A stretch of 64,000 nt of DNA. It comes from a virus. This document shows, piece by piece, positions 6,642-44,389 of the stretch (positions are counted from its first letter, which is position 1; each line of letters starts with the position of its first letter). Under the pieces are notes generated by a model. The model searched no databases. It had not been told where the DNA came from and was given only the letters and a program-made list of their open reading frames with translations. The stretch is taken from positions 1 to 64,000 of the IMG/VR virus record IMGVR_UViG_3300007511_001396, one strand, 5' to 3'. The translations under genes were made by a program, and so were the position numbers.

Positions 6642-6812
6642 ATGTATACCCGTTTTCAAAAAATGGTGCTTTGGACTACCTTTTCGGCTATTTGTGTCAA
6701 TATAGGCATCCTTATGTATGCTAACTGGTCAAACAATTTCGAATTACAGATTATTTCTATTTTAAATATGATTTTATTGAGTTGTGTTCTCTTACGCGAA
6801 GATACAAAATAA
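6642..6812 (+). CDS. Small two-span membrane protein, 56 aa
   Basis: ATG 6642 follows TAGGAG. The product has two hydrophobic segments (VLWTTFSAICVNIGILMY and LQIISILNMILLSCVLL) joined by a short polar loop and ends REDTK. Too small for family recognition; it could be a holin-like or superinfection-type membrane protein, but nothing in the sequence decides this. Confidence 0.5.
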   Translation: MYTRFQKMVLWTTFSAICVNIGILMYANWSNNFELQIISILNMILLSCVLLREDTK

Positions 6813-6828
6813 TAGGAGTGTTTTTAGA

Positions 6829-8427
6829 ATGAAACAGTATGTGAAATATATTTTTGTTCTGGCGGCTATTTTTACTAGCTGCACAGAATATGAACTTCAT
6901 GGTGATAAAAAAACGGTGGTAGTGCCCGAAGAGTCTCCTGATATCTCTGTATATCCTACACATATTGATTTTGGCTCTCTTAATGCGGACGGAGACATTG
7001 CATCAGAAGTAATAGTGATCACTAACGATGGACTTGATACTCTAAATCTTGACAACCTTGAAATGAAGGTTGGTAGTAGCGTCTTTTCTTTGTCCTCATT
7101 GGCCGTAGGATCGCTTGAGCCTGACGAAAAAACAGAACTGACCTTGACATACGATCCAGAAACTTATTCTAGCGACAGCGATTCTATCGTCATTTATTCT
7201 AACGACCCAGATGAACACATTTTAGAAATTCCAATTGTTGGAGAGGGTGCGGCTCCTGTGATTGATATTTCGCCAGAAGAACAAGATATGGGTATGACTT
7301 TAGTCGGCTGCGAAAATGAACAAATAATAAAGATCTCTAATTTTGGTAATGTTGATCTCGAAATAACAAGTGTTAATTATTTTGTTTCTTATCCTGCTGA
7401 CCTTTCTATCAGCACAGAAGAAAATATTAATGGTTTTCTGCCTTGGATTATACCACCAGGTGATTCTAAAATGGTCAAAGTGTATCATAACCCAATGGAC
7501 AGTGGTGCTGATTCAGGCTTTATCGAAATAGAGTCAAACGACCCCTTTGTTCCTGTTGCTGTTGCTGACCAAGACGCTTTTGGGGATTACACGGCGACAT
7601 TTGAAGAAAGATTTGAACAAGAAGAGATTGATTCCGTTGATGTCTTGTTTGTTGTTGATAACTCAGGTTCCATGGGATTCAATCAGATCAATTTATTGAA
7701 CAATTTCAATAGATTCCTAGTGTATTTAACATCTTCCGGAGTTTCATACAATATAGCTTTCATAACTACTGATGATCATGAGCTTGTTGGCCCTGTCATT
7801 AATTCTATGTTGGCAGATCCGTTAGCAGAAGCGTTGACACAAATAGGAAGTATCGGCACCAGAGGAAGCGCCCATGAACAAGGGTTTCAATCATCTCACG
7901 ATGCCCTACAGGCAGGTGGTCCAGCAGGAGATGGTGGGGACTTTTTCAGAAGAGATGCCAAATTAGTTATTATCTATGTTTCCGATGAAGATGATAGAAC
8001 ATATTCACACACACCTGCCACAATGTCTTCTTTTTTGTGGAGCTTAAAAAGCGATACTACGTTGGTAGTAGCTCATGCTATTGCTGGTGATGTGCCAGGG
8101 GGGTGTTCAACTAATGGTGGAGCAGATGAGGCACTAGAATACTTTGATTTGGTGGGATTAATGGGAGGAACATTCTTGTCTATCTGTGAAGATGATTGGA
8201 GTACACCGATGGAGAGCTTGGCTACTGCTTCTATTGTGTATGACACTTTTTTCCTCACCGAAACCCCCCTAGAGCGTACCATTCAAGTATTTGTAAATGG
8301 CGTAGAGGAATCTGGTTGGGTTTATAATAGTTCTGATAATTCTATTGTGTTTGAACGCTCTGCTATTCCATATGATGGCGATGACATTATTGTGGAGTAT
8401 GCTACCTTAGCTGAATGTATTGAGTAG
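6829..8427 (+). CDS. Lipoprotein with Hydin-like Ig repeats and a vWA domain
   Basis: ATG 6829 follows TAGGAG. The start KQYVKYIFVLAAIFTSC is a lipoprotein-type leader with Cys18 as the likely lipidated residue. Residues about 38-140 and 142-245 are two ASPM/SPD-2/Hydin-type beta domains (IDFGSL...GSLEPDEKTELTLTYDP). From about 270 there is a von Willebrand A domain with the MIDAS sequence DNSGS at 277-281. The C-terminus has the beta module (TIQVFVNGVEESGWVYN) seen in secreted vWA proteins of deltaproteobacterial lineages. It is probably a host-derived surface lipoprotein; a role in receptor masking or adhesion is inference. It is unusual in a phage. Confidence 0.75.
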   Translation: MKQYVKYIFVLAAIFTSCTEYELHGDKKTVVVPEESPDISVYPTHIDFGSLNADGDIASEVIVITNDGLDTLNLDNLEMKVGSSVFSLSSLAVGSLEPDEKTELTLTYDPETYSSDSDSIVIYSNDPDEHILEIPIVGEGAAPVIDISPEEQDMGMTLVGCENEQIIKISNFGNVDLEITSVNYFVSYPADLSISTEENINGFLPWIIPPGDSKMVKVYHNPMDSGADSGFIEIESNDPFVPVAVADQDAFGDYTATFEERFEQEEIDSVDVLFVVDNSGSMGFNQINLLNNFNRFLVYLTSSGVSYNIAFITTDDHELVGPVINSMLADPLAEALTQIGSIGTRGSAHEQGFQSSHDALQAGGPAGDGGDFFRRDAKLVIIYVSDEDDRTYSHTPATMSSFLWSLKSDTTLVVAHAIAGDVPGGCSTNGGADEALEYFDLVGLMGGTFLSICEDDWSTPMESLATASIVYDTFFLTETPLERTIQVFVNGVEESGWVYNSSDNSIVFERSAIPYDGDDIIVEYATLAECIE

Positions 8428-8489: not shown

Positions 8490-9245
8490 ATGAACAGAGT
8501 AACGCTTATAATTTTTGCCATCGCTTGGGCGGCGGCCTTATCTTTCGGGTTGGCAACCGCAGCCGCCGCAGCAGAGCCTATCACAAGTAGTGGCTCTGAG
8601 AGCGTCTCAGCTTCTATGTCCCTGGTTGAAAAAAGAGTAAGGGAGGCTGCAGTGCAAATAGTTTTTGCGACAGGTGGACACGGCTCTGGCTCGCTTATAA
8701 AATATAAAGATTTACATCTTGTGATTACTGCCCAGCACGTTGCAGACGGGAGTTTGGGGAAAGTTTATCATGTTCAAAAGAGAGACGAGATAAAGAGAGG
8801 TGTTTTAGTTTATTCAGATGAGGCTCACGACATTGCAATTTTATTAATAACTCCGTCTAATCGTTTTGTGGGCATTAAACCTATCAAATACAACCCTCTA
8901 AAGGATATTGCTGAGGTGGGTACCAAAATTATTTATTCTGGCTATCCTTCGCACCACAGCACTCTTTCATTTAGAGGAGAGATTGTCGGGAATGAAGTTG
9001 TTAACGGCGCAGGAACAATGTTAATGATAGACGTGTTTGGCTGGTTTGGGTCATCTGGTTCTGTTGTGTACAATACAGATGGACAAATCGTTGGAATATT
9101 GTGGGGAGTAGATGTTGAAAGGCGACGAAATAATCAAGTGAACGAAAATATGGTCTGGGTTTCGCCTATACAAAATCTAGACATTGATTTAGCTATTAAA
9201 GCTTTGTGCAATGGACTAAATAAACCACCAAAAGCTTGTAGATGA
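8490..9245 (+). CDS. Secreted trypsin-like serine protease
   Basis: A 251-residue protein with an N-terminal signal peptide (LIIFAIAWAAALSFGLATAAAAAE). The chymotrypsin-fold triad is visible: H83 in TAQHV, D114 in DEAHDIAIL and S189 in GWFGSSGSVV. It lacks the PDZ domain of DegP-type proteases. ATG 8490 is preceded by AAGGAG. It overlaps the Nudix gene by 4 nt. A periplasmic protease expressed by a phage could process envelope proteins or defend against superinfection; this is inference. Confidence 0.8.
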   Translation: MNRVTLIIFAIAWAAALSFGLATAAAAAEPITSSGSESVSASMSLVEKRVREAAVQIVFATGGHGSGSLIKYKDLHLVITAQHVADGSLGKVYHVQKRDEIKRGVLVYSDEAHDIAILLITPSNRFVGIKPIKYNPLKDIAEVGTKIIYSGYPSHHSTLSFRGEIVGNEVVNGAGTMLMIDVFGWFGSSGSVVYNTDGQIVGILWGVDVERRRNNQVNENMVWVSPIQNLDIDLAIKALCNGLNKPPKACR

Positions 9246-17235: not shown

Positions 17236-18067
17236 ATCTGTAGTGCATGAGATCGAAATTGATCTTTCTGATGACCCAAGGACAGTTGCCATTATTCCTG
17301 GTGCTTTCAAGCCACCGACACGTGCTCATTTGGGCTTAGTTGAATCTTATCTTACTATGGCCGATGAAGTTCTTATTTTAATTTCTGCTCCAACACGTAA
17401 AGGCAGATCGCTGCCTAATGGCAAAGAAGTGACTGCCGAAATCTCTAAACAGATTTGGGAAATGCTCTTATCTTCTGAGGCTCTTATGAATGTCAAGGTT
17501 GAAATATCTCCTCATGCATCACCAATTACTGCGGCATATGAGATGATTGGTGACGATGGACCATTTAAGGTCGGTGATACAATTATTTTGGGAGTTGGCG
17601 ACAAAGGCAATGATCCGAAGAGATTTTCTGGTGCTGGAAAGTATGTGAAAGAAGGCGTTAATTTTAAAGTCATTCCTGGTCAGCTTGATGGCCACAGTCG
17701 TGAATATTTAACCCTTTTGGATTCTTGGGATTCTTATGAACAGATGCCAAGTGCTGGTGGAGGTAACCCAGAGGCGATAAACGCCAGTGATTTACGGTTT
17801 ATTCTCGGAAAAGTTGATGAGGGCGATGATGTTGCTAGGCATTTGCTTGGTGATTTCGTATTTCCGGAGAATGTTGATAAGATTTTGAGTATTTTTGGCA
17901 TTTTGAATAACCTTGGAGAAATGTCGGCAGCAGGTGCTGGCGCTGTTAGTGGTTTTGCGGGGTCGCTTGGGACGATCAAAAAAAGAAAAAATAACTTTAA
18001 AGAGGTTGACGCCTCATTGGTAAATGAAATTTACAAACTATTTATAGAAAAAGGTATTATACAATGA
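17228..18067 (+). CDS. HIGH-family nucleotidyltransferase-like protein
   Basis: Start at ATG 17228, overlapping the previous gene. Around residue 20 the sequence PGAFKPPTRAHLGLVESYL corresponds to the GxFxPxHxGH segment of cytidylyl/adenylyltransferases (first His replaced by Thr, second kept). VLILISAPTRKGR and DTIILGVGDKG fit later strands of the Rossmann-like fold. The C-terminal 100 residues are not recognised. It could act on NMN or a sugar phosphate, or be a structural relic. Context among leader-bearing proteins gives no clear pathway. ATGA-type overlap with the next gene. Confidence 0.66.
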   Translation: MTKSVVHEIEIDLSDDPRTVAIIPGAFKPPTRAHLGLVESYLTMADEVLILISAPTRKGRSLPNGKEVTAEISKQIWEMLLSSEALMNVKVEISPHASPITAAYEMIGDDGPFKVGDTIILGVGDKGNDPKRFSGAGKYVKEGVNFKVIPGQLDGHSREYLTLLDSWDSYEQMPSAGGGNPEAINASDLRFILGKVDEGDDVARHLLGDFVFPENVDKILSIFGILNNLGEMSAAGAGAVSGFAGSLGTIKKRKNNFKEVDASLVNEIYKLFIEKGIIQ

Positions 18068-18891
18068 ACACCAAAGAAGAAAAGATACTTAGAAATAGTA
18101 TACAAGAAATGATTCGCTTTGTCAAGAACAAAAGAGAAAATAAAATATCTTCTACAATTAGGGAAGCTCTCAATTCGGAAATAGCAATCTTACAAGAAGA
18201 AAAAGAACTTCGAATTATTATACGAAAAATGGTAATGTTGGAATCCAAAAAACTGGCAGAAGGTATGCCTGATGGAGATCCGACACCCAACAAATCTACA
18301 GGTATAAATGTATTAGAAGATTTATTAAAGAAGATTATCCCCGTTTTAAAAATTGATTTTAAACTCCTTACTACAAGTTCTGATCAGAGGCATTCGTATC
18401 GAGCGCATATCCTTAGCGCTGTGGTAAAATCTTTATCCCCTGCTATTGCTAATGATGAGGCTGGAGAGTCTTCAAAAAGCGATTTAGACGAAGAAGTTGA
18501 TATTGAAATTGGCGATGAAGAGCCTGTAGATGATAAATTCATTGATATTAGGACTGACGCTGAGCGGGATTCCGAGGACGGCAAACAAGAAGTTGATCCA
18601 CGTGATGAGTTTGGCTCTGGGTTTGAGGGTTCTGATCAGACTGGTCGAAACATGGCCTTCGAATCTTTCAAAAAAGTTGAAACTGGTATCTTAGATGCTT
18701 ATGATTTATTGTCTAATGATGAAGATCAAGAGCTATTTTATGACTATTTGATAGCCAACCTAAAATTGTATTTTGACAAATTTGAGAATGAAATGGCTGG
18801 AGAAATAGAAGAGCCTTCCAATCAAGCATATGATATGGCGAAACAACAGGAAGAACCTGAAATATCAGGCGGTGAAGAGTTAGAATTCTAA
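18064..18891 (+). CDS. Acidic helical protein, 275 aa
   Basis: The N-terminal 75 residues are highly charged helix (LRIIIRKMVMLESKKLAEGM); the remainder is strongly acidic (KSDLDEEVDIEIGDEEPVDD) and ends with another acidic helix. No family recognised. The composition would suit a scaffold, head-core or internal protein, but no homology is visible. A CTATTTA element lies at 18038-18044, 20 nt before the start. Confidence 0.55.
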   Translation: MNTKEEKILRNSIQEMIRFVKNKRENKISSTIREALNSEIAILQEEKELRIIIRKMVMLESKKLAEGMPDGDPTPNKSTGINVLEDLLKKIIPVLKIDFKLLTTSSDQRHSYRAHILSAVVKSLSPAIANDEAGESSKSDLDEEVDIEIGDEEPVDDKFIDIRTDAERDSEDGKQEVDPRDEFGSGFEGSDQTGRNMAFESFKKVETGILDAYDLLSNDEDQELFYDYLIANLKLYFDKFENEMAGEIEEPSNQAYDMAKQQEEPEISGGEELEF

Positions 18892-19051: not shown

Positions 19052-19408
19052 ATGAAAGTTAAAAAAAATAAAAGATTAAGACCTTTAGAACATTTAAGTG
19101 TTTTAAAAAAACTTAGAAAAGAAGGAAAGATAGATGATAGCTTTCTGGTATGTTTAAATTCTTTAGAATTAGAAGATATAATAGCTATAAAGTTAGAATT
19201 ATCAGCTAGACTATTAAATCACAGACCTTATGGATTTGATATCTGGAAGAAAATACCAAAGATAGTTAAAGAATCAATATTAAAGTTTTCTATCTCTTCT
19301 ACAGCTTCAAAGAAAGCTGCTGCAAGGTTTTTAGGCTTAACATCACCAGAATTTAATTCTTTATATAAGAACTACGATATACAGAAATATTTCGATAAAA
19401 ACACATAA
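19052..19408 (+). CDS. AT-rich HTH-like protein, 118 aa
   Basis: A basic helical protein beginning MKVKKNKRLRPLEHL. The C-terminal part (TASKKAAARFLGLTSPEFN) looks like a Fis-type helix-turn-helix, with a preceding DIIAIKLELSARLLNHRPYG helix. Similar small proteins occur in marine T4-like phages as unassigned conserved genes. It could be a transcription regulator. Its coding DNA is much more AT-rich than the lipoprotein gene right after it, and no clear ribosome binding site is seen. Confidence 0.55.
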   Translation: MKVKKNKRLRPLEHLSVLKKLRKEGKIDDSFLVCLNSLELEDIIAIKLELSARLLNHRPYGFDIWKKIPKIVKESILKFSISSTASKKAAARFLGLTSPEFNSLYKNYDIQKYFDKNT

Positions 19409-19419
19409 TGGAGGTTATT

Positions 19420-20742
19420 ATGAAATGGAAAAGTTTAGCTTTATTAGCATTGCTAGGTTGCGAAGAGGGTAAAATCACTGGTGAAGCCTCCGATGTGGAC
19501 GGAGCAGAGGACTCAGCTGACGAAGGGGCCGAAGAGGAGGCTCCAAAGGCCGTCAACGGTACTATTTCGGGGACGGTGGAAGTTCAGCTTTATCAGTCTG
19601 GCGATGACGGCGAACGGGAGTATGTCTCTTGGGACGAAGCCACTGGGGGAGTTTATATCTTCGGTAGTATTTTTGTATCGAGCTATTTTGTGGACGAAGA
19701 AGGTTTTGAGCACTTTACTGGGGACGCAGTGGTCGAAAACCCCGAAGTCACACCTAACGAATACACCTTGGAAATGGGGCTAGACGACGCAAGAGGTGTT
19801 TATGTGTACTCTATCGTTGATTACTGGCAGGACAGAATTATTGGCTCGTCAGAGCCTAAAGGCGTATACCCGCTAGAAGTTGATGTGGTTAACGGCGCGG
19901 ACGTAACCGACATCGATATGAACATTCTCACCCCTATTTACAGCGGTGGCGGTGGTTGTGGCGGTAGCGGCGGTGGTGGTGGAGAAGGCTCTGGTCTAGC
20001 TAGCAGTATCGAGATCAGCGGGGACGCTTACATCACGATGTCTTACGCTGGCGGTTCAGCCGCAGCAATGATTATGAACAGCAACAACGAAGGGCCTTAC
20101 TGGTACAACTGGTTTACACCAGAGAGCGCTGGTGGTGGAGCTGTTGGATCTTACGGAATGCGTACTTGCTCTGGATATGGCGAGATGCAGTTGGTGGCAG
20201 CTTGGGACTCTAATGGCAACAATATGATTGATCCTACAGACCGCTGGGGTGCATTCGCTCCAACTCCAGACGTAGATGGAAATCCGATTGATATCCAATA
20301 CGAAGACCTAGAAGGCTATGATTTACAGATTCCTCTCGGTGATGGGCCTGGGTTAAATATGGTTCCATTTGTACGCTTAACGGGTGATGTACACATTCCT
20401 GATGCCACTTTTGACGAGCTACCAAGCGGCACTACAGTTTACGTGGCGGCCTTAAAATACCGTCCAGACGGTGAGTTCTCTGTAGCAGAACTTGGTTCGG
20501 CCTACGACTTGGTAACCTATGAGTGGCCTGAATTAACTGGTGAAACCCAAAAGGACTACGCGTTAACGGTTCCAGCCAACACGATTGCGTACTTGTGGGC
20601 ATATGCTGACATGGATGGCAACGGTGTTGTCAACGAGTCCGGTGAGCCAATCGCAAGTGGTGGAGACGAGAATGGAAAAGTCCCAACTGGTACAACGCCA
20701 ACATCATCAAACGATTTAAGTTTGCACACTGCAAACGAATAA
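19420..20742 (+). CDS. Large lipoprotein with glycine-rich linker
   Basis: Start at ATG 19420, with GGAGG at 19410-19414. The leader KWKSLALLALLGC|EEG is a good lipobox (Cys14). After an acidic tether the protein has beta-rich segments split by a glycine linker near residue 178 (SGGGGCGGSGGGGGEGSG). DMDGNGVVNESGEP near the end looks like a calcium-binding DxDxNG loop. The gene is close to 50% GC, well above its neighbours, and resembles surface lipoproteins of deltaproteobacterial-type hosts. Recent acquisition from a host and a surface (exclusion or adhesion) role are inferences. Confidence 0.68.
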   Translation: MKWKSLALLALLGCEEGKITGEASDVDGAEDSADEGAEEEAPKAVNGTISGTVEVQLYQSGDDGEREYVSWDEATGGVYIFGSIFVSSYFVDEEGFEHFTGDAVVENPEVTPNEYTLEMGLDDARGVYVYSIVDYWQDRIIGSSEPKGVYPLEVDVVNGADVTDIDMNILTPIYSGGGGCGGSGGGGGEGSGLASSIEISGDAYITMSYAGGSAAAMIMNSNNEGPYWYNWFTPESAGGGAVGSYGMRTCSGYGEMQLVAAWDSNGNNMIDPTDRWGAFAPTPDVDGNPIDIQYEDLEGYDLQIPLGDGPGLNMVPFVRLTGDVHIPDATFDELPSGTTVYVAALKYRPDGEFSVAELGSAYDLVTYEWPELTGETQKDYALTVPANTIAYLWAYADMDGNGVVNESGEPIASGGDENGKVPTGTTPTSSNDLSLHTANE

Positions 20743-20751
20743 ACAATATAA

Positions 20752-21115
20752 GGGGGCGCAATGGTTTCGACTAGGTAAGAGAAACGAATAGTGCAAGTAG
20801 TCTAACGAATAACAGACTTAAAATGTAGTTCAAAAAAATAATTGCTAATAACAATAATTTCTACAACGACGCTGCCTTAGCAGCATAGTAGGGAGGTGCT
20901 TAGAGCCTTCTATCCAATCTAAGCTAAATGCCTGATTCACATTGACGTTATAACGAATCAAAATGGTTACCCTACTTGTAGTAGGTGGACCCAGAGACGA
21001 CATAAGGGTGGTTGAATACTGTCGTAACCTTTGCTGGGATTAGAAACCAGATAAACTTGTGAATGACTTGAAATGGAAATTATTTAGGACAGCGGTTCGA
21101 CTCCGCTCGCTTCCA
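20752..21115 (+). ncRNA. ssrA: Transfer-messenger RNA (tmRNA)
   Basis: The 5' end GGGGGCG (20752-20758) pairs with CGCTTCC (21108-21114); A21115 is the discriminator and CCA is not encoded there. The 5' part has the conserved GGTTTCGAC, and the T arm is AGCGG-TTCGACT-CCGCT (21091-21107). The tag frame opens after an in-frame TAG (20826-20828), reads KKIIANNNNFYNDAALAA from 20832 and ends in tandem TAG TAG (20886-20891). After it comes GGTGCTTAGAGCC, as in E. coli tmRNA. The exact resume codon (AAA 20832 or another codon up to GCT 20844) is not certain. With SmpB it would rescue stalled ribosomes and tag proteins for proteolysis; no smpB gene is seen here, so host SmpB is presumably used. Confidence 0.93.
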
Positions 21116-21152
21116 ACTCCACCAAAAAACCCGCCGTTTCCATTACTTTAAA

Positions 21153-24345: not shown

Positions 24346-25677
24346 ATGTCAGTAAAGAAAAACTATGTGTTAGATACAAGTGTTTATCTAACGGATTCCG
24401 ATTCAATTAATAAATTTAACAATCACGATATCTTCATTCCACTGAAGGTGCTTGAAGAAATAGATAAACACAAAAAGCGACAAGACCAAGTTGGTATTAA
24501 CGCTAGGCAGATTGTTCGTACCCTAGATAGCATACGAGAAAAAGGAAATCTACAGAAGGGAGTGAGACTAGGAAAAGGTAAGGGTATTCTCAGAGTTGTT
24601 TCTTTTGAGAGCTTAAACACTTCAGAGTTTCCAGCTGATTTAGATCTATCAGTTCCCGATCATGTTATCATAGCCACAGCACTTGCGATACAAGCAGAGA
24701 ACCCAAAAAGAAAAATGGTTGTAGTATCACGTGACATCAATATGCGCGTTATTTGCGACTCACTTGGCCTACAAGCAGAAGACTATATTAGCGAGAAGGC
24801 TGTTGTTTCTTCAGAGCAATTGTATCAAGGTATGGTAGTACATTTGGTTGATGATCAATTTGTAGATCGATTTTATGCCGGTGATGAACTTTATATCGAT
24901 GAAGATGAAGCAAAAAGTCAATGGTATCCTAATCAATATATTTTGATGGTGTCTAGTACCAATGAGAAGAAGAGTGCAATAGCACGCTTCTATAACCACC
25001 AGGAGCCTTTGAAAAAAGTAATCCACTCCAAGATATCTGATTGGAAAATAAACTCAAGGAACAAGGAACAGGCGTTCGCTATTGACCTACTATTAGACCC
25101 TACAGTTAAGTTAGTATCATTGGTTGGTAAAGCTGGTAGTGGAAAAACTTTAATAGCATTAGCATGTGGGTTACAACAAGTATTAAATGCCGGCGACAAC
25201 GACTATGATCGTCTCATAGTTGCTCGACCAGTCCAACCCCTTGGCAAAGATATCGGTTTTCTACCAGGTGATGTCAATGAAAAGATGCTCCCTTGGTTGA
25301 TGCCTATTCAAGATAATCTTAAATTCTTAATGGGCGGCAAGACCCCACTTGAGATGTATATGGACAAAGGTAAGATAGAGATTGAGCCATTGACTTATAT
25401 CCGTGGTCGCTCAATAGCAAATGCATTCATTGTCATTGATGAAACACAGAATTTAACAATGCATGAGATAAAAACAATCATAACCAGAATAGGTGAAGGC
25501 TCGAAGATAGTTTTAACCGGAGACGTGGAACAAATAGATAATATCTATGTTAATGAAACATCAAATGGCCTTGCGCACGCTGTAGAAAAGTTCAAAGAGT
25601 ACAGAATCGCTGGTCACGTTACTTTCAAGAAGGGTGAACGCTCCGAGCTTGCTTCACTAGCGGCAAAGGTGTTATAA
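24346..25677 (+). CDS. phoH: PIN-PhoH protein (PhoH2-like ATPase/RNase)
   Basis: A 443-residue two-domain protein. Residues 5-150 are a PIN-type RNase domain (VLDTSVYLTDSD with D10, VVSRDINMR near 127). Residues about 240-443 are a PhoH ATPase with Walker A GKAGSGKT at 261-268, Walker B FIVIDETQN at 361-369, and LTGDVEQID. Bacterial PhoH2 unwinds and cuts RNA. PhoH proteins are common in marine phages, where their role is unclear. A CTATTTA element ends 22 nt upstream. Full-length and intact. Confidence 0.9.
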   Translation: MSVKKNYVLDTSVYLTDSDSINKFNNHDIFIPLKVLEEIDKHKKRQDQVGINARQIVRTLDSIREKGNLQKGVRLGKGKGILRVVSFESLNTSEFPADLDLSVPDHVIIATALAIQAENPKRKMVVVSRDINMRVICDSLGLQAEDYISEKAVVSSEQLYQGMVVHLVDDQFVDRFYAGDELYIDEDEAKSQWYPNQYILMVSSTNEKKSAIARFYNHQEPLKKVIHSKISDWKINSRNKEQAFAIDLLLDPTVKLVSLVGKAGSGKTLIALACGLQQVLNAGDNDYDRLIVARPVQPLGKDIGFLPGDVNEKMLPWLMPIQDNLKFLMGGKTPLEMYMDKGKIEIEPLTYIRGRSIANAFIVIDETQNLTMHEIKTIITRIGEGSKIVLTGDVEQIDNIYVNETSNGLAHAVEKFKEYRIAGHVTFKKGERSELASLAAKVL

Positions 25678-27503: not shown

Positions 27504-28790
27504 ATGAAAAAAACTAAAATCTTAACGATCTCAGATCACCCATTATCTCCTAGCGGAGTTGGAACACAGACTAAATACTTTATAGAAGCACTTCTCAAAA
27601 CAGGTAGATATGAATTTATCTCTTTGGGCGGTGCTATCAAGCATCAAAGTTATGAACCACAAAAAGTAGAGCCATATGGAGATGCTTGGCGAATTTTCCC
27701 AATAGATGGATATGGGAACCATGAAGTGATACGCTCTATAATACAAAAAGAGAAACCAGATGTATTATGGTTTATGACCGATCCACGATTCTTTACGTGG
27801 CTTTGGGAAATAGAAAATGAAGTTAGGGCCAATATCCCAATGGTATATTATCATGTTTGGGATAATAAGCCCCACCCACATTTTAATGGAATATTTTATA
27901 GATCAACAGATGTAGTGGCGTGTATTTCTAAAGTAACACACGATATATTACAAAATGTATCACCTGATGTTGAAAGTTGTTATCTGCCTCACGCAGTACA
28001 CTCCAACGTTTTCAAGCCATTAACCACAGAAGAAGATGTTTTAAAAATAGACATTCTTCGTGAAAGATTAACTGTTGAGAGCACAAAGAATCATAAGAAT
28101 AAAAATAAAAAAGTGTTTTTATGGAACAACAGAAATGCTAGGCGAAAGCAAAGCGGAACTCTGATCTGGTGGTTTAAAGAATGGCTCGATAAAGTCGGTC
28201 ACGATAAAGCATGTCTGTTAATGCACACAGATGCACGAGATCCACATGGCCAAGATTTACCACATCTTATTGAACAAGTAGGGGTCAATGATGGACAAGT
28301 GTTGTTGTCCACTGAAAGAGTAGGCGCAGAGAGACTGTCTTTACTTTATAATATGGCCGACTTTACTATTAATATATCAGATGCAGAAGGATTTGGTCTG
28401 GCTACTCTAGAGTCACTGTCTTGTGGAACCCCAATTATTGTAAATATGACAGGCGGCCTTCAAGAACAGGTTACCGACGGCCAGAATTGGTTTGGATGGG
28501 GGATACAACCCAGTTCTAAGGCTGTAATAGGTTCACTACAGGTGCCATATATTTATGAGGACCGTATTTCTCAAGAAGACTTTGAAAAGTCTTTAAACAA
28601 AGCATTAAAACTCCCGAAGACAAAATATAAGAAGATGTCCGAGGCTGGAATAAACCACGTTAAAACAAAATATAATTTTGAAACATTCGAAAAAAGCTGG
28701 GTTGACTTGATGGATAATATAGTTGAAACTCGTGGCTCTTGGGAAACTAGGAAGAATTATAAGCGTTGGCATTTATTGGAGGTAGCGTAA
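27504..28790 (+). CDS. GT4-type glycosyltransferase
   Basis: A 428-residue GT-B protein opening the glycan island. The N-terminal SDHPLSPSGVGTQTKYFIEA resembles the acceptor-side Gly-rich loop; the C-terminal part contains SDAEGFGLATLESLSCGTPI, the E-x7-E nucleotide-sugar site of GT4 enzymes. It would add a sugar to a cytoplasmic acceptor; donor and linkage are unknown. TAATG overlap with the next transferase. Confidence 0.82.
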   Translation: MKKTKILTISDHPLSPSGVGTQTKYFIEALLKTGRYEFISLGGAIKHQSYEPQKVEPYGDAWRIFPIDGYGNHEVIRSIIQKEKPDVLWFMTDPRFFTWLWEIENEVRANIPMVYYHVWDNKPHPHFNGIFYRSTDVVACISKVTHDILQNVSPDVESCYLPHAVHSNVFKPLTTEEDVLKIDILRERLTVESTKNHKNKNKKVFLWNNRNARRKQSGTLIWWFKEWLDKVGHDKACLLMHTDARDPHGQDLPHLIEQVGVNDGQVLLSTERVGAERLSLLYNMADFTINISDAEGFGLATLESLSCGTPIIVNMTGGLQEQVTDGQNWFGWGIQPSSKAVIGSLQVPYIYEDRISQEDFEKSLNKALKLPKTKYKKMSEAGINHVKTKYNFETFEKSWVDLMDNIVETRGSWETRKNYKRWHLLEVA

Positions 28791-30055
28791 TGAAAAAGAA
28801 AATTTTACTTAAGGCACCACTTTTGACTAGATCTGGATATGGAGAACAGAGCCGATTTGCGTTGCGTGCATTGCGCTCACGAGAAGATTTATTTGATATC
28901 TATGTTCAACCTCTTCAATGGGGAAAGACATCTTGGGTTTCATTGGTAGATGACGAAAGGAAATGGATTGATCAGACAATAGAAAAAACTATTGCTTATC
29001 TACAATCAGGTGGCCATTTTGATATGTCCCTACAGGTTTCAATACCAAATGAGTGGGAAAAAATAGCCCCCGTCAATGTAGGATATACTGCCGGAATAGA
29101 GACAACGAAAGTAGCTCACCAATGGATCCAAAAAGGCAATGAAATGGATAGAATTATTGTTGTTTCAGATCACTCCAAGAACACTTTCCAAGAGACAGAA
29201 TACACAGCTATCAATAAAAATGATCAATCTCAGCAGTTTAAAATTAAAATTGATACCCAAATAGATTCAGTAAATTATCCAGCTAAAACTTTTGACACCT
29301 TACCAGATCTAGAGCTAGAGTTATCCACAGATATTAATTTTTTGACTGTCGCACAATTCGGCCCTCGAAAAAATCTCCCAAATACTATTCGATGGTTTGT
29401 TGAAGAATTCAGGGACGAAGACGTAGGGCTCGTTGTAAAGACAAGTTTTGCGAAGAATTGCTTAATGGATCGTGAAAAGGTATTCAGTGAGCTAAAGAAA
29501 TTTCTTTCCACTTTAGGCGACCACAAATGCAAAGTATATTTGTTACACGGAGATATGGAGGATGATGAGATGCATTCACTTTATACTCATACTCAAATAT
29601 CGGCTCTAGTAGCTTTAACTCACGGCGAAGGCTTTGGGCTACCAATCTTTGAAGCGGCATATAGTGGCTTGCCGGTCATAGCCACAGGATGGTCAGGCCA
29701 GTTGGATTTCCTAGTAGATGAAAACAAAGCCGAGCACTTTTATAATGTTGCATTTGATATTAATCCAGTGCCCCCAGAGGTTGTCTGGGATGGTGTCTTA
29801 GTTAAAGAATCAGGCTGGTCATACCCTCGTGAAGAATCTGCAAAAGCTAAGATGAGAAATTGTTATGAGGATATTTTAAGTAACGAAAAAGACACTTTTG
29901 TCGCTAATGCTGAATCATATGCCGAATCAGTGCAAGCCAGATTTGCCGAAAGTAAACAAAACTCGTTATTCGTAGAAAGCCTTTTAGATTATGTCAGTAC
30001 CGAAGAAGAGAGGCAGTGGCAAGGTATCATTGACCAAGTGGTAGAATATGACTAA
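28790..30055 (+). CDS. GT4-type glycosyltransferase
   Basis: Start at ATG 28790, with GGAGG ten nt upstream and overlap with the previous stop. The 421-residue protein begins MKKKILLKAPLLTRSGYGEQ and contains LTHGEGFGLPIFEAAYSGLP, the GT4 donor site. A DHSKN... TVAQFGPRKNLPN segment fits the second Rossmann domain. Related in form to its upstream neighbour, and likely part of the same glycan assembly. Overlaps the next gene by 8 nt. Confidence 0.82.
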   Translation: MKKKILLKAPLLTRSGYGEQSRFALRALRSREDLFDIYVQPLQWGKTSWVSLVDDERKWIDQTIEKTIAYLQSGGHFDMSLQVSIPNEWEKIAPVNVGYTAGIETTKVAHQWIQKGNEMDRIIVVSDHSKNTFQETEYTAINKNDQSQQFKIKIDTQIDSVNYPAKTFDTLPDLELELSTDINFLTVAQFGPRKNLPNTIRWFVEEFRDEDVGLVVKTSFAKNCLMDREKVFSELKKFLSTLGDHKCKVYLLHGDMEDDEMHSLYTHTQISALVALTHGEGFGLPIFEAAYSGLPVIATGWSGQLDFLVDENKAEHFYNVAFDINPVPPEVVWDGVLVKESGWSYPREESAKAKMRNCYEDILSNEKDTFVANAESYAESVQARFAESKQNSLFVESLLDYVSTEEERQWQGIIDQVVEYD

Positions 30056-31703
30056 AGAGGTTATTTTTGTTTCTGACTTCTTCGCAGATGAAGTTCGTGG
30101 AGGAGCAGAACTATGTAATGATGCCTTAATCAAAATACTGGGCAGAGATTATAAAATAACAACAGTGAAGTCTCAGAATATCACTCCGAGAGACCTTGAA
30201 GATTCAGATAAAAAGATATTTGTAATAGCTAACTTTTTCTTATTACAAGAAGCAGTTAAATATGCTCTTGAAGATAAGACATATATTATTTTAGAACATG
30301 ATCATAAATATGTTGCTTCCAATAATCCATCTTTGTATCCTGATTTTTTGGCCCCCGAAGAGCAGATAATAAATAAAAGATTTTATACCAATGCGTTGGC
30401 CGTTTTGTGTCAAAGTAAAAAGCATTCAGAAATATTACAAAAGAATCTTTTAATAAACAATATTGTAAACCTTGGCGGCAACCTGTGGACAGAGGAGCAA
30501 TTATCTGTTCTTGAGCAGAACATCGACACGCCTCAAAAAACAGACTTTGCTGTTATAAGAACGAATAACAAAAACAAAGGAATGCCAGCAGCAATTGATT
30601 TTTGCAACAAACAAGGGATTGACTTTCAATTTATCGAAAGTCAACCATTTGAGAGCTTTATATCTACTTTGGCAAGCGTCAAGCATCTTGTGTTTTTTCC
30701 TCAATGGTTTGAGACATACAATCGGTTGTCAATAGAAGCTAGAGTAGTTGGGTGTAAATTGGTGACCAATTCTTTAATAGGGGCCGCCAGCGAAGAGCAT
30801 TTTAAATTAAAGGGCAGAGAGTTGTTGGATTTTCTACGCGAAAACAACACCACTTTAATTAAAAAATGGAAGGTTATCCTCAGTGAACAAGAAATAGCTT
30901 TTATACCCCCAGTAGAACTACCAAAGGTAACTATTTTTTGCCCCCTATATGCTGGCGAAAAATACATTAAAGGCTTCTTGGAAGATATTGAAAATCAAAC
31001 TATTTTTGAAGATTGTGAATTGATTATAATCAATGCAAACTCGCCAGAGAATGAAGAAGAAATTATTTTAGATTTTATGAAATCAAACAACAACGTAGTA
31101 TACAGGAAATTAGATTATCGAGCCACTGTTATGGAAACAGAAAATATGGCCATTGAAATGGCAACCGGTGACTTTTTTGCTCAAGCTTGCGTTGATGATA
31201 GACATTCAGCAACATATTTAGAAACAATGGCGAAACACCTTCATTATTCTAAGGGCGTAGACTTGGTATATGCTGATTGTTTCCAGACCACTGCCCCCAA
31301 CGAAACATTTGAAAAAAACAGCTCTAATGGGACACTATATGAGCACTCTAAAAATGCTTTTAGTAGAGAGAATATGATTAAATGTTTGCCTGGCCCAATG
31401 CCTATGTGGAAGAAGTCCATACACAAGACAGCAGGCCTCTTTAATGACTCTCTGTCCTATGCTGGAGACTGGGAAATGTTTTTAAGGATGGTTGAGGTAG
31501 GTTCTGTTTTTAAAAAGATTAAGAGGCCTCTGGGGCTGTATTTCTATAATGATGATGGTCTCTCAACATCAAAAGAACACTCGAAACCAAGACAGAAAGA
31601 AGAGGCGGAAGTATTCTTTAATTTTAAGGATATTTTTGGTCAGAAGAACTTTGAAGCTTATAAAAGCTATTTTCAACATTTAAGAGGAGAAGAAAATGAG
31701 TAA
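30048..31703 (+). CDS. Bimodular glycosyltransferase (GT-B-like plus GT2)
   Basis: A 551-residue protein with two modules. Residues 1-275 look like a GT4-type GT-B domain, beginning VRGGAELCNDALIKIL and containing FFPQWFETYNRLSIEARVVG. From about 298 a GT2 (GT-A) domain follows: KVTIFCPLYAGEKYIKGFLE, then QACVDDRHS as the metal-binding D-D site. Such fusions allow two successive sugar additions. Specificity unknown. Overlaps the next gene by 8 nt. Confidence 0.78.
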   Translation: MTKEVIFVSDFFADEVRGGAELCNDALIKILGRDYKITTVKSQNITPRDLEDSDKKIFVIANFFLLQEAVKYALEDKTYIILEHDHKYVASNNPSLYPDFLAPEEQIINKRFYTNALAVLCQSKKHSEILQKNLLINNIVNLGGNLWTEEQLSVLEQNIDTPQKTDFAVIRTNNKNKGMPAAIDFCNKQGIDFQFIESQPFESFISTLASVKHLVFFPQWFETYNRLSIEARVVGCKLVTNSLIGAASEEHFKLKGRELLDFLRENNTTLIKKWKVILSEQEIAFIPPVELPKVTIFCPLYAGEKYIKGFLEDIENQTIFEDCELIIINANSPENEEEIILDFMKSNNNVVYRKLDYRATVMETENMAIEMATGDFFAQACVDDRHSATYLETMAKHLHYSKGVDLVYADCFQTTAPNETFEKNSSNGTLYEHSKNAFSRENMIKCLPGPMPMWKKSIHKTAGLFNDSLSYAGDWEMFLRMVEVGSVFKKIKRPLGLYFYNDDGLSTSKEHSKPRQKEEAEVFFNFKDIFGQKNFEAYKSYFQHLRGEENE

Positions 31704-32121
31704 CCAAAGACGATATATGCCAACATTGGCAGAACTAATAGACAGACTAACAATTGTTCAATTAAAAGAAGTTTTAATAGCTGACCATAAGCCGGAATAT
31801 GCCCAAGAGATTTCTGATATTATGCATGATATAGATTTAATTCTAAAAGAGGGTAATATTGTTCTAGATGCAAAAGCTTTAAGAGCTTTGGTCGTAGTTT
31901 CACAATATAACTTACATATCTGGCACAATGAGTCGAACTATAGAAAGGGTATCGATGAAGGAAACAATTTAGAACTAACACATGGATTAAACGGCATTAG
32001 AAATAGGGCTAAAAACAGAATCCAAAACATGGTTAATGGTCGCAAGGATTACAAAACAGACTGCCTAGCAGCTGATATGCACTCTTGGGAACCATCTTGG
32101 AACAATGACCAAGAAGGCTGA
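31696..32121 (+). CDS. Hypothetical protein in glycan island
   Basis: A 141-residue soluble helical protein (PTLAELIDRLTIVQLKEVLI near the start, GRKDYKTDCLAADMHSWEPS near the end). No domain recognised. It is embedded by overlaps between a glycosyltransferase and an oxidoreductase, so it is part of the same operon. Confidence 0.55.
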   Translation: MSNQRRYMPTLAELIDRLTIVQLKEVLIADHKPEYAQEISDIMHDIDLILKEGNIVLDAKALRALVVVSQYNLHIWHNESNYRKGIDEGNNLELTHGLNGIRNRAKNRIQNMVNGRKDYKTDCLAADMHSWEPSWNNDQEG

Positions 32122-33202
32122 CTTTGAAATAGTGATAGTCGGCGCTGGAGTCGTTGGCTTGGCTATTGCTGAAGAATTGTCCAAGACTTATGACAACATT
32201 CTAGTAGTCGACAAAGAAAGATCATTTGGCAACCACACATCTAGCAGAAATAGTGAGATTATTCATTCTGGGCTCTATTATCCTAAATCTACTCTAAAGA
32301 CAAAATTGTGTATTGAGGGCAACAGATTATTGTATGAGTTTGCCAAAGATAACAAATTACCACACAGAAGATGCGGAAAGTTAATTGTAGCCTCCGAAGA
32401 TAAAGAGATACCAGTATTAAAAAAGTTATTACTTCAGGGTTTAGAGAATGGAGTAAGTGATTTGGAAATGGTGTCTAGTGATTATATAAAGGACGTAGAG
32501 CCACAAATAAAAGCGATACAAGCCTTGAAAGTGCCATCAACTGGTATCATCGATAGCCACCAATTAATGGCAAGACTTGAATCTAACGCCGAAAATAGAG
32601 GAGTCTGTTTTTCGTATAACACAGAGATTTCGAATATTAATAAAAAAAATGATCTTTTTTGGTTGACAAGTGGCAACGATGATGTTATGATATCTTCAAG
32701 GGTATTAATAAACTCTGCTGGGTTGTGGTCAGATGAAGTGGCCGCAATGGCAGGAATAAAAGATTATAAGATATTTTGGTGTAAAGGGGAATATTACAAG
32801 ACCACAAAATATCGCAATATGAATCACTTAATATACCCAGTACCAGATCCAGATGGCAAATATCTTGGAATACACACAGTGTTAGATTTGGATGGAAATG
32901 TTTCTTTTGGCCCAAACGCCACATATGTTGATAATTTAGACTATTATCAAACAGAAGATAATATAAGACACTTCAAAAATTCTATTGATAGATATTTAGA
33001 CATTACTGAAAATGACTTAACGCCATCTATGGTTGGCATTAGACCAAAGATTCAAAGCCCATCAGAAACATTTAAAGACTTTATCATTAAAAATGAAGCC
33101 GACAACGGCTACAACAACCTAATCAATTTAATTGGAATTGAATCACCAGGCTTAACAAGCTGTCTAGCGATAGCAAAACTAACAAAAGGACTAATACAAT
33201 AA
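32105..33202 (+). CDS. FAD-dependent oxidoreductase (LhgO/DAO family)
   Basis: A 365-residue protein with the FAD dinucleotide-binding GAGVVG near residues 12-17, followed by VDKERSFGNHTSSRNSEIIH, the substrate-side signature of L-2-hydroxyglutarate dehydrogenase/oxidase-like enzymes. The C-terminal VGIRPKIQSP and LIGIESPGLTSCLAIA close the fold. It would oxidise a hydroxy acid or similar; in a sugar cluster it might act on a sugar-derived acid (inference). Stop and next ATG overlap (TAATG). Confidence 0.8.
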   Translation: MTKKADFEIVIVGAGVVGLAIAEELSKTYDNILVVDKERSFGNHTSSRNSEIIHSGLYYPKSTLKTKLCIEGNRLLYEFAKDNKLPHRRCGKLIVASEDKEIPVLKKLLLQGLENGVSDLEMVSSDYIKDVEPQIKAIQALKVPSTGIIDSHQLMARLESNAENRGVCFSYNTEISNINKKNDLFWLTSGNDDVMISSRVLINSAGLWSDEVAAMAGIKDYKIFWCKGEYYKTTKYRNMNHLIYPVPDPDGKYLGIHTVLDLDGNVSFGPNATYVDNLDYYQTEDNIRHFKNSIDRYLDITENDLTPSMVGIRPKIQSPSETFKDFIIKNEADNGYNNLINLIGIESPGLTSCLAIAKLTKGLIQ

Positions 33203-34131
33203 TGAATATTTTAATCACTGGCGCAGCAGGATACATCGGGAGCGAGTTGATAGATTACTTGCTCAAAGACAATCACACAGTAATTGCATATGACAACTTA
33301 ATGTATGATCCAACATCTCTCTTGAGATACACAAACAATCCTAATTTCTCATTCGTCAAAGGAGATGTAAGAAACTTAACGCTCTTGGGAGAACATATGA
33401 AAGATGCAGATGTGATCATTCCTTTGGCAGCTCTTGTTGGGTTCCCATTATGTGATCAAGACCCACGCGCTGCCCAAGAAATTAACCATGATGTTAACAC
33501 TTGGATAGCCAACAATAAAAGGCCAGAACAGAGGGTCATTTACCCTTGTACAAACTCTGGTTATGGAACAAGTGAAGATGGCTCTGTTTGTACTGAAGAA
33601 TCCCCGCTGAATCCGGTATCACTATATGGACGAACAAAAGTCGCCGCAGAAGAAGAATATAGAAAGGTTGATAACTTTGTAACATTCAGGTTTGCAACTG
33701 TTTTTGGCCCAGGGTCACGTATGAGGACAGATTTATTAGTAAACAATTTTGTTCTAGGAGCCCTAAGAGAGCGACTTTTAGTTTTATATGAATGCGAATT
33801 TATGAGAAACTATGTACATCTGCAAGATGTCTGCCGAGCATTTAAATATATTATTGATAATTGGGATACTTGCAAAAACGAAACATATAATATGGGTAAC
33901 GATAGTTTGAATATGAACAAATTGCAATTAGCTGAGAAAATTCAAGAACATATTCCTTTAGAGATTATTAAAGCAGAATTTAACTCAGACCCGGATATTA
34001 GGGATTACGAAGTCAGTAGTCAAAAGTTTTATGACAAGGGATTTGAATGCGCTTATGATCTAGATGACGGCATTCGCCAATTAGTGACAGCTTATAGTAT
34101 CATTGAATCACCGTGGTATGCAAACTATTAA
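33202..34131 (+). CDS. NAD-dependent sugar epimerase/dehydratase
   Basis: A 309-residue SDR protein with ITGAAGYIGSELIDYL at the NAD site and the catalytic pair in YGRTK (Y-x3-K). The YPCTNSGYG segment supplies the Ser/Thr. The family interconverts nucleotide sugars; exact substrate (UDP-, GDP- or CDP-linked) cannot be told. Starts one base into the previous stop codon. Confidence 0.8.
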   Translation: MNILITGAAGYIGSELIDYLLKDNHTVIAYDNLMYDPTSLLRYTNNPNFSFVKGDVRNLTLLGEHMKDADVIIPLAALVGFPLCDQDPRAAQEINHDVNTWIANNKRPEQRVIYPCTNSGYGTSEDGSVCTEESPLNPVSLYGRTKVAAEEEYRKVDNFVTFRFATVFGPGSRMRTDLLVNNFVLGALRERLLVLYECEFMRNYVHLQDVCRAFKYIIDNWDTCKNETYNMGNDSLNMNKLQLAEKIQEHIPLEIIKAEFNSDPDIRDYEVSSQKFYDKGFECAYDLDDGIRQLVTAYSIIESPWYANY

Positions 34132-34141
34132 GGGAGACAAC

Positions 34142-35653
34142 ATGGAGCACGAAATAGATGTTTTATTTGTTCACCCAAATGGTTCTCCGATAATATACCA
34201 AGAACTTAGTAAAACATATTCTGCAATAGAACCACCTATTTGGGCAGGACTTTTGGCCAATAATGCCAGAAAGAATAATTTTAAAACTAAAATTTTAGAT
34301 TGTGAGGCAGAACGCTTTGGAGCAGAAGAGTCAGCAAACGCTATTAAAGCGATAAATCCAAGGCTAGTCGCCTTAGTGATTTATGGACAACAGCCATCCG
34401 CATCCACACAAAATATGATTGGTGCCCGTGTTCTACTAGAAGAGTTAAAAAACAAAGACTTCATAGGAAAGACAATATTAATAGGATTGCATCCATCTGC
34501 AACATCCCGCAACACTATGGAAACTGAGATAACTGACTTTGTTTGTCAAGGCGAAGGGCCACACACAATAAAGGCTCTTTTAGAGATAGATATGAACAAT
34601 ACTGAGCATTTATCAACAGTTCCGAGTCTCTGGTATCGCGATGATCAAGACACAAAATGTACGACTCCTGCTCCTATAATACCACAAGAAGAACTTGCAA
34701 CAGAACTTCCGGGTATGGCTTGGGATTTGTTACCGATGGACAAATATCGAACATCAAATTGGCACGCCATGACCAATGAAGATGACCGAAGCCCATTTGC
34801 ATCTCTGTATACTAGTCTAGGTTGCCCTTTCAAGTGTAGCTTTTGTTGTATAAATGCCCCCTTTGGAAATAACAATTTAGAGAATTGGGACTCAGCCCGT
34901 AATAAATTTCGCTATTGGGATCCTGAATTTATGATCACGGAGTTTGAAAAATTGCATGAAATGGGAATCAAGAATGTAAAGATAGCAGATGAGATGTTTG
35001 TATTATATCCGGATCACTTTATGAGACTGTGTGAGATGATTATCGATAGAGGGTATAAATTTAATATTTGGGCATATGCTAGAATAGATACGGTAAAAGA
35101 AAAATATTTAAGTACTCTCAAGAGAGCAGGAGTAACTTGGTTGGCACTAGGAATAGAATCTGGAAACACTATGGTAAGAAAAGATGTCACTAAAGGTAAA
35201 TTTACTGATGTTAAAATTAAAGATTTGGTTGAAAATATCCAAAATGCGGGCATCAAAGTAATAGGCAACTATATTTTTGGATTACCAGAGGACACAATGG
35301 AGACTATGAGAGATACTTTGGATTTAGCTAAAGAACTAAATTGTGAGTTTGCTAATTTTTATTCTGCAATGGCTTATCCTGGTTCTAAATTATATTTAGA
35401 TGCCTTACGAGAAGGCTGGGAACTGCCAGATTCATATGTTGGCTTCTCTCAACACTCTTATGAAACGAAGCCTCTACCAACTAAACATATCTCGGCAGCC
35501 CAAGTTTTAGGATTCAGAGATAAAGCTTTTGATGAGTACTACAAAAACGAGGATTATCTTGTTATGATAGAGGAGAAGTTTGGACACTCTACTAGGCAAG
35601 GCATAGAAGAGATGGTAAAGATTAAACTTAAACGAAAGATTTTAGGAGATTGA
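34142..35653 (+). CDS. B12-binding-domain radical SAM protein
   Basis: ATG 34142 follows GGGAG. The 503-residue protein has an N-terminal Rossmann domain of the cobalamin-binding type (HPNGSPIIYQ, ILIGLHPSATSR) and a radical SAM core with C228-x3-C232-x2-C235 (CPFKCSFC) for the 4Fe-4S cluster. Members (BchE, P-methylase group) methylate unreactive carbon or phosphorus or form rings. The classic D-x-H-x-x-G cobalamin ligand motif is not obvious. In this setting C-methylation of a sugar is one reading (inference). Confidence 0.8.
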   Translation: MEHEIDVLFVHPNGSPIIYQELSKTYSAIEPPIWAGLLANNARKNNFKTKILDCEAERFGAEESANAIKAINPRLVALVIYGQQPSASTQNMIGARVLLEELKNKDFIGKTILIGLHPSATSRNTMETEITDFVCQGEGPHTIKALLEIDMNNTEHLSTVPSLWYRDDQDTKCTTPAPIIPQEELATELPGMAWDLLPMDKYRTSNWHAMTNEDDRSPFASLYTSLGCPFKCSFCCINAPFGNNNLENWDSARNKFRYWDPEFMITEFEKLHEMGIKNVKIADEMFVLYPDHFMRLCEMIIDRGYKFNIWAYARIDTVKEKYLSTLKRAGVTWLALGIESGNTMVRKDVTKGKFTDVKIKDLVENIQNAGIKVIGNYIFGLPEDTMETMRDTLDLAKELNCEFANFYSAMAYPGSKLYLDALREGWELPDSYVGFSQHSYETKPLPTKHISAAQVLGFRDKAFDEYYKNEDYLVMIEEKFGHSTRQGIEEMVKIKLKRKILGD

Positions 35654-35654
35654 G

Positions 35655-36266
35655 ATGTTTACGAAAGAAGATTTAATAGAATATGAAAATGAGATTGCTG
35701 CTCGTTTTGACGATGCCCAAATAAGGGCACCAGTACATTTGTACAATGGAAACGAAGAACAAATTATAAAAGTGTTCAAAGAACAAGACATTGGTCAAGA
35801 TGACTGGGTTCTCTGTTCCTGGAGAAGCCATTATCAATGCTTATTGAAAGGAGTACCACCAGACGCTCTAACAAAAGCTATCTTGCAAGGCCGCTCCATT
35901 TCTCTTTGTTTTGCAGAGCAAAGAATCTTGTGTTCTGGCATTGTAACTGGCACGATACCAATTGCTGTTGGCATTGCATTAGATATTAAGCGAAAAGGTG
36001 GAACAAATAAAGTGTATTGTTTTATGGGTGATATGACATCTGAAACCGGTGTGGCCCACGAAAACATTAAATATGCAAGAAACCACGAGCTACCAATTCA
36101 CTTCATCATAGAAGATAACGGTAAATCAGTGTGTACTGACACGAGAGCAACATGGTCTCAAGATACTATGACCTTTGAGGGAATAAATGATGATTATGTT
36201 ACGTACTATAAATATAATTTAGATAAATACCCGCATGCAGGCGCGGGAAAGAGGGTTCAATTCTAA
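35655..36266 (+). CDS. Thiamine-diphosphate enzyme, alpha-like subunit
   Basis: A 203-residue protein with the ThDP signature GDMTSE...N (GDMTSETGVAHENIKYARNH then IIEDNGKS), as in E1-alpha subunits of 2-oxo acid dehydrogenases, and GTIPIAVGIALDIK before it. It is much shorter than pyruvate dehydrogenase E1-alpha (about 350-400). Together with the next gene it should form one heteromeric ThDP enzyme. No E2 or E3 genes are present, so a transketolase-like or carboligase role on a sugar is more likely than oxidative decarboxylation (inference). Confidence 0.8.
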   Translation: MFTKEDLIEYENEIAARFDDAQIRAPVHLYNGNEEQIIKVFKEQDIGQDDWVLCSWRSHYQCLLKGVPPDALTKAILQGRSISLCFAEQRILCSGIVTGTIPIAVGIALDIKRKGGTNKVYCFMGDMTSETGVAHENIKYARNHELPIHFIIEDNGKSVCTDTRATWSQDTMTFEGINDDYVTYYKYNLDKYPHAGAGKRVQF

Positions 36267-44379: not shown

Positions 44380-44389
44380 AGGATTAAAA

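What the first reader, a model, noticed from the sequence alone, without database searches (positions are those of the whole stretch)
20752..21115. Phage-encoded tmRNA with an Asn-rich tag and unclear resume codon
A complete tmRNA with good acceptor stem, T arm and tag frame. The frame can only start after an in-frame TAG at 20826, so the tag is at most 19 residues and ends NNNNFYNDAALAA. The usual UAG-U-C spacing before the resume codon is shifted: the other reading after UAGUU would give only QKN and a stop. A phage tmRNA can change which proteins are tagged and degraded. No smpB is seen in the window.
Basis: partly seen in the sequence, partly recalled or inferred. Interest (0 to 1): 0.7.

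Follow-up and report, generated by a model that had tools for sequence, protein, structure and literature searches.

The report
Phage-encoded tmRNA, ordinary resume codon
This virus of bacteria carries its own complete copy of tmRNA, the RNA that frees stuck ribosomes and tags their unfinished proteins for destruction; such viral copies are already known, the supposed oddity at its start codon is not real, but the gene turns out to be a fixture of a large group of uncultured viruses with tags of their own.

Summary
The tmRNA is real: ARAGORN and Rfam both place a complete one-piece tmRNA at 20752-21115. The "unclear resume codon" is a misreading. The tag is ANNNNFYNDAALAA. PK2 is supported by strong compensatory changes. 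The one real local peculiarity is the 3' end: the acceptor stem closes on CGCUUCC-A but ACU follows instead of CCA, apparently after a 6-nt tandem duplication; about a fifth of viral relatives also lack an encoded CCA. No SmpB is found in this record or in about 30 relatives, so SmpB must come from the host. Wider finding: the gene is positionally conserved and apparently vertically inherited in a large uncultured T4-like clade. It sits on the same strand after a 118-aa protein with a predicted Fis-like HTH; 72 of 74 testable contigs chosen by that protein carry a tmRNA. Tags form viral series (ANNNxHFE...RLAA, ANDNV...YALAA). The ANNN type was found in only 3 of 84,980 prokaryote genomes, at least two being phage DNA in MAGs. 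Phage tmRNAs are an established kind. No expression evidence exists.

The parts
20752..21115 (+). tmRNA (ssrA) gene, one-piece
   Evidence: ARAGORN; Rfam RF00023 103.8 bits; identical in a second contig L157, 8164 bases at 99.99% identity
20752..20758 (+). acceptor stem 5' strand GGGGGCG; G3 pairs with U70 (alanyl-tRNA synthetase identity pair)
   Evidence: G3-U70 in 134 of 135 distinct viral tmRNAs
   Evidence: Rfam alignment; comparison by eye of sequences
20832..20843 (+). A-run and UAAUU that set the resume codon
   Evidence: rule from PMC2481249
20844..20891 (+). tag reading frame GCU...GCA UAG UAG, peptide ANNNNFYNDAALAA; end of frame forms hairpin GCUGC/GCAGC at 20871-20884
20891..20924 (+). 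pseudoknot 2 (GGGAGG/CCUUCU and GCUUAGA/UCUAAGC)
   Evidence: 13 of 13 pairs formed in the window; 98% of cells paired over 55 distinct segments, 8 pairs with two-sided change, slid controls 31-57%
20934..21050 (+). pseudoknot 3 and 4 region, differing from close relatives; exact pairing not settled
   Evidence: Rfam alignment weak here; sequence inspection
21054..21090 (+). helix 2 3' strand, AACUUGUGAAUGAC..., shared by this viral group
21091..21115 (+). T arm AGCGG-UUCGACU-CCGCU, acceptor 3' strand CGCUUCC and discriminator A
21116..21124 (+). ACUCCACCA trailer: CCA is not encoded at the expected place; looks like a 6-nt tandem duplication (UCCAAC/UCCACC) of the usual end
   Evidence: same in L157
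19052..19408 (+). 118-aa protein (p19052), conserved upstream neighbour of the tmRNA in this viral clade; all-helical, C-terminal Fis-like helix-turn-helix by predicted fold; not SmpB-like
18064..18891 (+). 275-aa protein, unknown family, part of the conserved gene order before p19052
19408..20742 (+). 444-aa lipoprotein-like ORF lying between p19052 and the tmRNA; among the loci compared, a homologue was seen only in the near-identical contig L157
22249..22716 (+). cytidylyltransferase-like protein, conserved downstream marker of the locus
24346..25677 (+). PhoH-like ATPase with PIN domain, conserved downstream marker of the locus

Best explanation
It is a structurally intact phage-encoded one-piece tmRNA. 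After transcription (probably with the upstream genes), it is trimmed at both ends, receives CCA from the host's nucleotidyl transferase, is charged with alanine by host AlaRS through G3-U70, and with host SmpB enters ribosomes stalled on broken messages. Translation resumes at GCU 20844 and adds (A)ANNNNFYNDAALAA, whose LAA end hands the protein to host ClpXP-type proteases. The likely benefit to the phage is to keep ribosomes free while host and phage mRNAs are being degraded during infection. Shown: the anatomy, PK2 conservation, positional conservation, absence of SmpB in the records searched. Inferred: transcription, processing, charging, tagging and benefit.
For: Full-length Rfam and ARAGORN matches; canonical resume signal; G3-U70; PK2 98% paired with two-sided changes at 8 of 13 pairs against slid controls of 31-57%; same locus order p18064-p19052-tmRNA-...-p22249-PhoH in relatives with diverged proteins; 72 of 74 testable contigs chosen by p19052 carry a tmRNA; tmRNA divergence tracks p19052 divergence over 90 loci, Mantel r=0.68, 0 of 2000 permutations as high.
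Against: No expression data. No SmpB in the record or relatives, so function depends on an unidentified host. CCA not encoded, so an extra processing step is needed (though 26 of 135 viral relatives lack it too). PK3/PK4 pairing is unsettled; the Rfam score is lower than that of the close relatives (103.8 against 112-120).
Confidence: 0.85

Rival explanations
1. A decoy or modulator: the phage tmRNA competes with host tmRNA for SmpB, AlaRS or ribosomes and so weakens or redirects host trans-translation, rather than adding useful rescue capacity.
For: No phage SmpB; mycobacteriophage DS6A carries little more than the tRNA-like domain and such a molecule strongly inhibits tmRNA (PMC4131195; PMC11915505); tags differ from those of the bacteria checked.
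Against: A decoy needs no tag frame, resume signal or PK2, yet these are conserved here and across relatives.
Confidence: 0.1
2. A recently captured host ssrA or an attachment-site relic left by an integrating element.
For: Host ssrA genes are integration sites and have been proposed as the source of phage copies (PMC9004378); the 3' end carries a small duplication.
Against: Same position and strand in dozens of viral contigs; no tyrosine integrase in seven records searched; no bacterial ssrA with this tag type found beyond three MAG hits, two of them in phage DNA.
Confidence: 0.03
3. A decaying gene: the 3' duplication has destroyed the encoded CCA and the tmRNA is no longer functional in this particular virus.
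For: CCA replaced by ACU; extra G-U pair in the acceptor stem; lower Rfam score.
Against: All seven acceptor pairs, all five T-stem pairs, G3-U70, resume signal, tag frame with double stop and all 13 PK2 pairs are intact; other viral tmRNAs lack CCA.
Confidence: 0.07

Closest known systems
Bacterial one-piece tmRNA (ssrA, Rfam RF00023)
   Same: Acceptor and T arm, G3-U70, A-run plus UAAUU before a GCU resume codon, tag ending LAA, pseudoknots
   Different: Encoded by a virus without SmpB; helix 2 and tag sequence belong to a viral series; CCA not encoded here
Phage tmRNAs: mycobacteriophages Bxz1/Wildcat, Bacillus phage G, Streptomyces BE1/BE2 phages, huge phages
   Same: Complete tmRNA in a phage genome (PMC4131195; PMC7162821; one search list)
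   Different: Different phage lineage and tags; huge phages as a group also encode SmpB (PMC7162821), not found here
Methylophilales phage Melnitz and pelagimyophage tmRNA
   Same: T4-like marine myophage with its own tmRNA and no sign of integration (PMC9004378)
   Different: Theirs is two-piece and permuted, under a glutamine riboswitch; this one is one-piece and follows a Fis-like gene. No riboswitch reached Rfam's cut-off in the window

Membership tests
tmRNA (RF00023) | Full-length covariance-model match above gathering score | tested here: met
   103.8 bits against 47, model 1-374
tmRNA (RF00023) | tRNA-like domain with 7-bp acceptor stem, T arm, G3-U70 | tested here: met
tmRNA (RF00023) | Resume signal (conserved U-A before the -1 triplet) and resume codon | tested here: met
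   AAAAAAAUAAUU-GCU; rule from PMC2481249
tmRNA (RF00023) | Short in-frame tag ending in hydrophobic LAA with stop | tested here: met
   ANNNNFYNDAALAA UAG UAG
tmRNA (RF00023) | Pseudoknots, typically four | tested here: inconclusive
   PK2 strongly supported; PK1 supported by inspection of a few relatives; PK3 and PK4 plausible but unsettled
tmRNA (RF00023) | Mature CCA end | tested here: inconclusive
   Not encoded at the expected place; addition by the host cannot be tested
tmRNA (RF00023) | SmpB partner | not testable with these tools
   Absent from the virus and relatives; host unknown
tmRNA (RF00023) | Alanylation and tagging activity | not testable with these tools
   needs experiment
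Two-piece permuted tmRNA (RF04321) as in Melnitz | Permuted gene order | tested here: not met
   One-piece order throughout; no RF04321 match at gathering score in the window
p19052 as an SmpB substitute | SmpB sequence or fold | tested here: not met
   No PF01668 match in the records; predicted all-helical fold (pLDDT 84), nearest solved folds are Fis, weakly (E about 0.8)

The most novel reading that the evidence does not exclude
In a large uncultured T4-like clade, tmRNA is a core viral gene kept with a Fis-like protein, with virus-specific degradation tags (many ending RLAA instead of ALAA) shaped for the infected cell, so that trans-translation during infection is run with the phage's tag and not the host's; the Fis-like protein may regulate or otherwise act with it.
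Probability: 0.3. Interest if true: 0.6.

Novelty: new member of a known kind. Interest (0 to 1): 0.42.

Why it matters
Phage tmRNAs have mostly been reported genome by genome (402 phages, 2.3% of 18,146 genomes; PMC9004378), with capture from a host or prophage as one suggested origin. Here one appears as a near-universal, position-conserved gene of a whole clade, which argues that ribosome rescue is a regular viral need. The tag series gives a direct handle: tagged peptides could be sought in metaproteomes of infected communities.

Tried and rejected
BLAST of the tmRNA against 50,697 phage records: no match. p19052 against the same: no match. Idea that p19052 replaces SmpB: rejected by predicted fold. 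Idea of a bacterial source: a pattern scan of 84,980 genomes gave three hits; the WOR-3 one lies near a run of N with a p19052 homologue, the Marinimicrobia one carries p22249, an HNH gene, PhoH and p26713 of the phage, and both MAGs have another tmRNA elsewhere; the Flavobacteriales contig (4.7 kb) is unresolved. Marinimicrobia native tags (ADYGYMAAA, GESNYALAA and others) do not match, and 1 of 245 genomes of that phylum had the pattern. The scan was for ANNN tags with this PK2 only, so a host with another tag would be missed. Single-strand folding energy is uninformative. Closest cultured relatives by baseplate protein: Microcystis phage Mel-JY01 and Flavobacterium phage immuto have no tmRNA match over the cut-off; a 484-kb uncultured phage does.

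Full report
WHAT IS THERE. A complete one-piece tmRNA lies at 20752-21115 on the + strand (ARAGORN). Rfam matches the whole model with 103.8 bits, E=1.9e-39. The window belongs to a 74,320-base IMG/VR virus record with T4-like structural genes. A second contig (L157, 8,164 bases, one mismatch to the window) carries the identical gene, so it is not a single assembly's error.

THE RESUME CODON. The real signal is AAAAAAAUAAUU at 20832-20843 directly followed by GCU at 20844. In E. coli the stretch is AAAAAAUAGUC-GCA, and A86 in it is the key nucleotide (PMC2481249). Among 135 distinct viral relatives, UAGUU (60) and UAAUU (30) are the commonest five bases before the resume codon. The alternative frame reads QKNNC-stop. 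So this part of the finding is ordinary.

STRUCTURE. All seven acceptor pairs and five T-stem pairs form, including G3-U70, the alanine identity pair, present in 134 of 135 relatives. PK2 was tested on 55 distinct segments: 98.0% of cells paired, 8 of 13 pairs with changes on both sides; sliding one strand by 1-3 bases gives 31-57%. That control favours a structure read off the same sequences to some extent, but the two-sided changes are many (for example C-G 24, A-T 24, T-A 4 at one pair). PK1 is supported by inspection; PK3 and PK4 are not settled.

THE 3' END. Relatives end CGCCTCCACCA or CGTCTCCACCA; here the sequence is CGCTTCC-A-ACTCCACCA. The simplest reading is a 6-nt tandem duplication (TCCAAC/TCCACC) followed by one change, leaving the usual stem but ACT where CCA should be. 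CCA would be added after trimming. 26 of 135 viral relatives also lack an encoded CCA, so this is not by itself a sign of decay.

THE LOCUS. Four virus groups compared at length (window, G002, G003/G004, G008) share the order p14692, p15855, p17174, p18064, p19052, tmRNA, p22249, and further on PhoH where the compared stretch reaches it, with various inserts, and this extends to many contigs found by a tmRNA pattern. To avoid that circularity, contigs were then fetched by p19052 alone: 405 relatives found, the best 80 kept. Of 77 new ones, ARAGORN finds a tmRNA downstream in 64 and Rfam in 8 more, four of them cut by the contig end. Three others end within 138 bases of p19052 and cannot be judged; two (L257, L261) show none. 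So 72 of 74. The sample is the nearest fifth of the family and contains near-duplicates, so the figure should not be read as a rate for all. p19052 and the tmRNA lie on the same strand in all cases measured and sometimes overlap by 33-56 bases. Their divergences correlate (Mantel r=0.68 over 90 loci, 0 of 2000 permutations), as expected of vertical inheritance.

THE NEIGHBOUR. The window's p19052 has no family in Pfam or PHROGs, and its relatives have only scattered weak PHROG matches. AlphaFold2 gives an all-helical model (pLDDT 84) whose nearest solved structures are Fis proteins, with weak E-values near 1; a profile search also touches NtrC and Fis at E 0.2-0.7. I read it as a probable Fis-like DNA-binding protein, not as SmpB.

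TAGS. Two main viral series appear: ANNNxHFE/D...(R or A)LAA and ANDNVxxDYALAA. Tags end RLAA in 60 and ALAA in 59 of 135. A specific pattern for the ANNN series hit three of 84,980 prokaryote genomes, at least two in phage DNA. The window's own tag end was found in one further contig only, L157.

MECHANISM. Most likely it works as an ordinary tmRNA with host SmpB, AlaRS, CCA-adding enzyme and proteases, relieving ribosomes stalled on decaying messages during infection. A decoy role is possible but hard to square with the conserved tag frame and resume signal. None of this has been tested by experiment here.

KNOWN OR NEW. Phage tmRNAs are well established (PMC4131195, PMC9004378, PMC7162821). 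This is a new member. What goes beyond the literature seen here is the clade-wide conservation, the Fis-like neighbour and the tag series; only open-access papers were searchable, so prior description elsewhere cannot be excluded. That the contigs are marine is likely from MAG labels and my memory of dataset numbers, but was not verified.

Noticed in passing
window 6784-8427 and 8490-9245: A signal-bearing protein with HYDIN-like Ig domains and (by eye) a von Willebrand-type segment, followed by a trypsin-like protease; unusual cargo for a T4-like phage and possibly a hint at the host lineage.
   Followed up: partly
window 27504-47348: A long run of glycosyltransferase-like and nucleotide-sugar genes (GDP-mannose dehydratase, DegT aminotransferase, PfkB kinase, FAD oxidoreductase by Pfam), looking like a surface-polysaccharide pathway.
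   Followed up: partly
L142, L089, L129, L141, L118, L050, L152, L047: The reading frame of the p19052 homologue runs 33-56 bases into the 5' end of the tmRNA gene, so the same DNA is coding sequence and acceptor/D-region.
   Followed up: no
L042, L061, L069, L076, L096, L104, L133: Viral tmRNAs with tags such as GDYQPTYAYAA that ARAGORN places at about 136-173 in the gene, well beyond the usual 85-98; either a long insert before the tag or a miscall.
   Followed up: no
L243, L244, L201: Odd tag ends or starts: QQRLTA with double stop, and a 23-residue call VQNKLVPVFANNNEHFDAVALAA, probably ANNNEHFDAVALAA with an over-long frame.
   Followed up: no
L162 (CP070664.1, WOR-3 MAG chromosome): A phage-type tmRNA with a p19052 homologue sits in a bacterial MAG chromosome near a run of N; the scaffold is probably chimeric.
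   Followed up: partly
LR756508.1 positions 92434-92880 and 414804-414915: A 484-kb uncultured phage carries one tmRNA match and a second, 112-base match to the ends of the model only, reminiscent of tag-less tmRNA.
   Followed up: no
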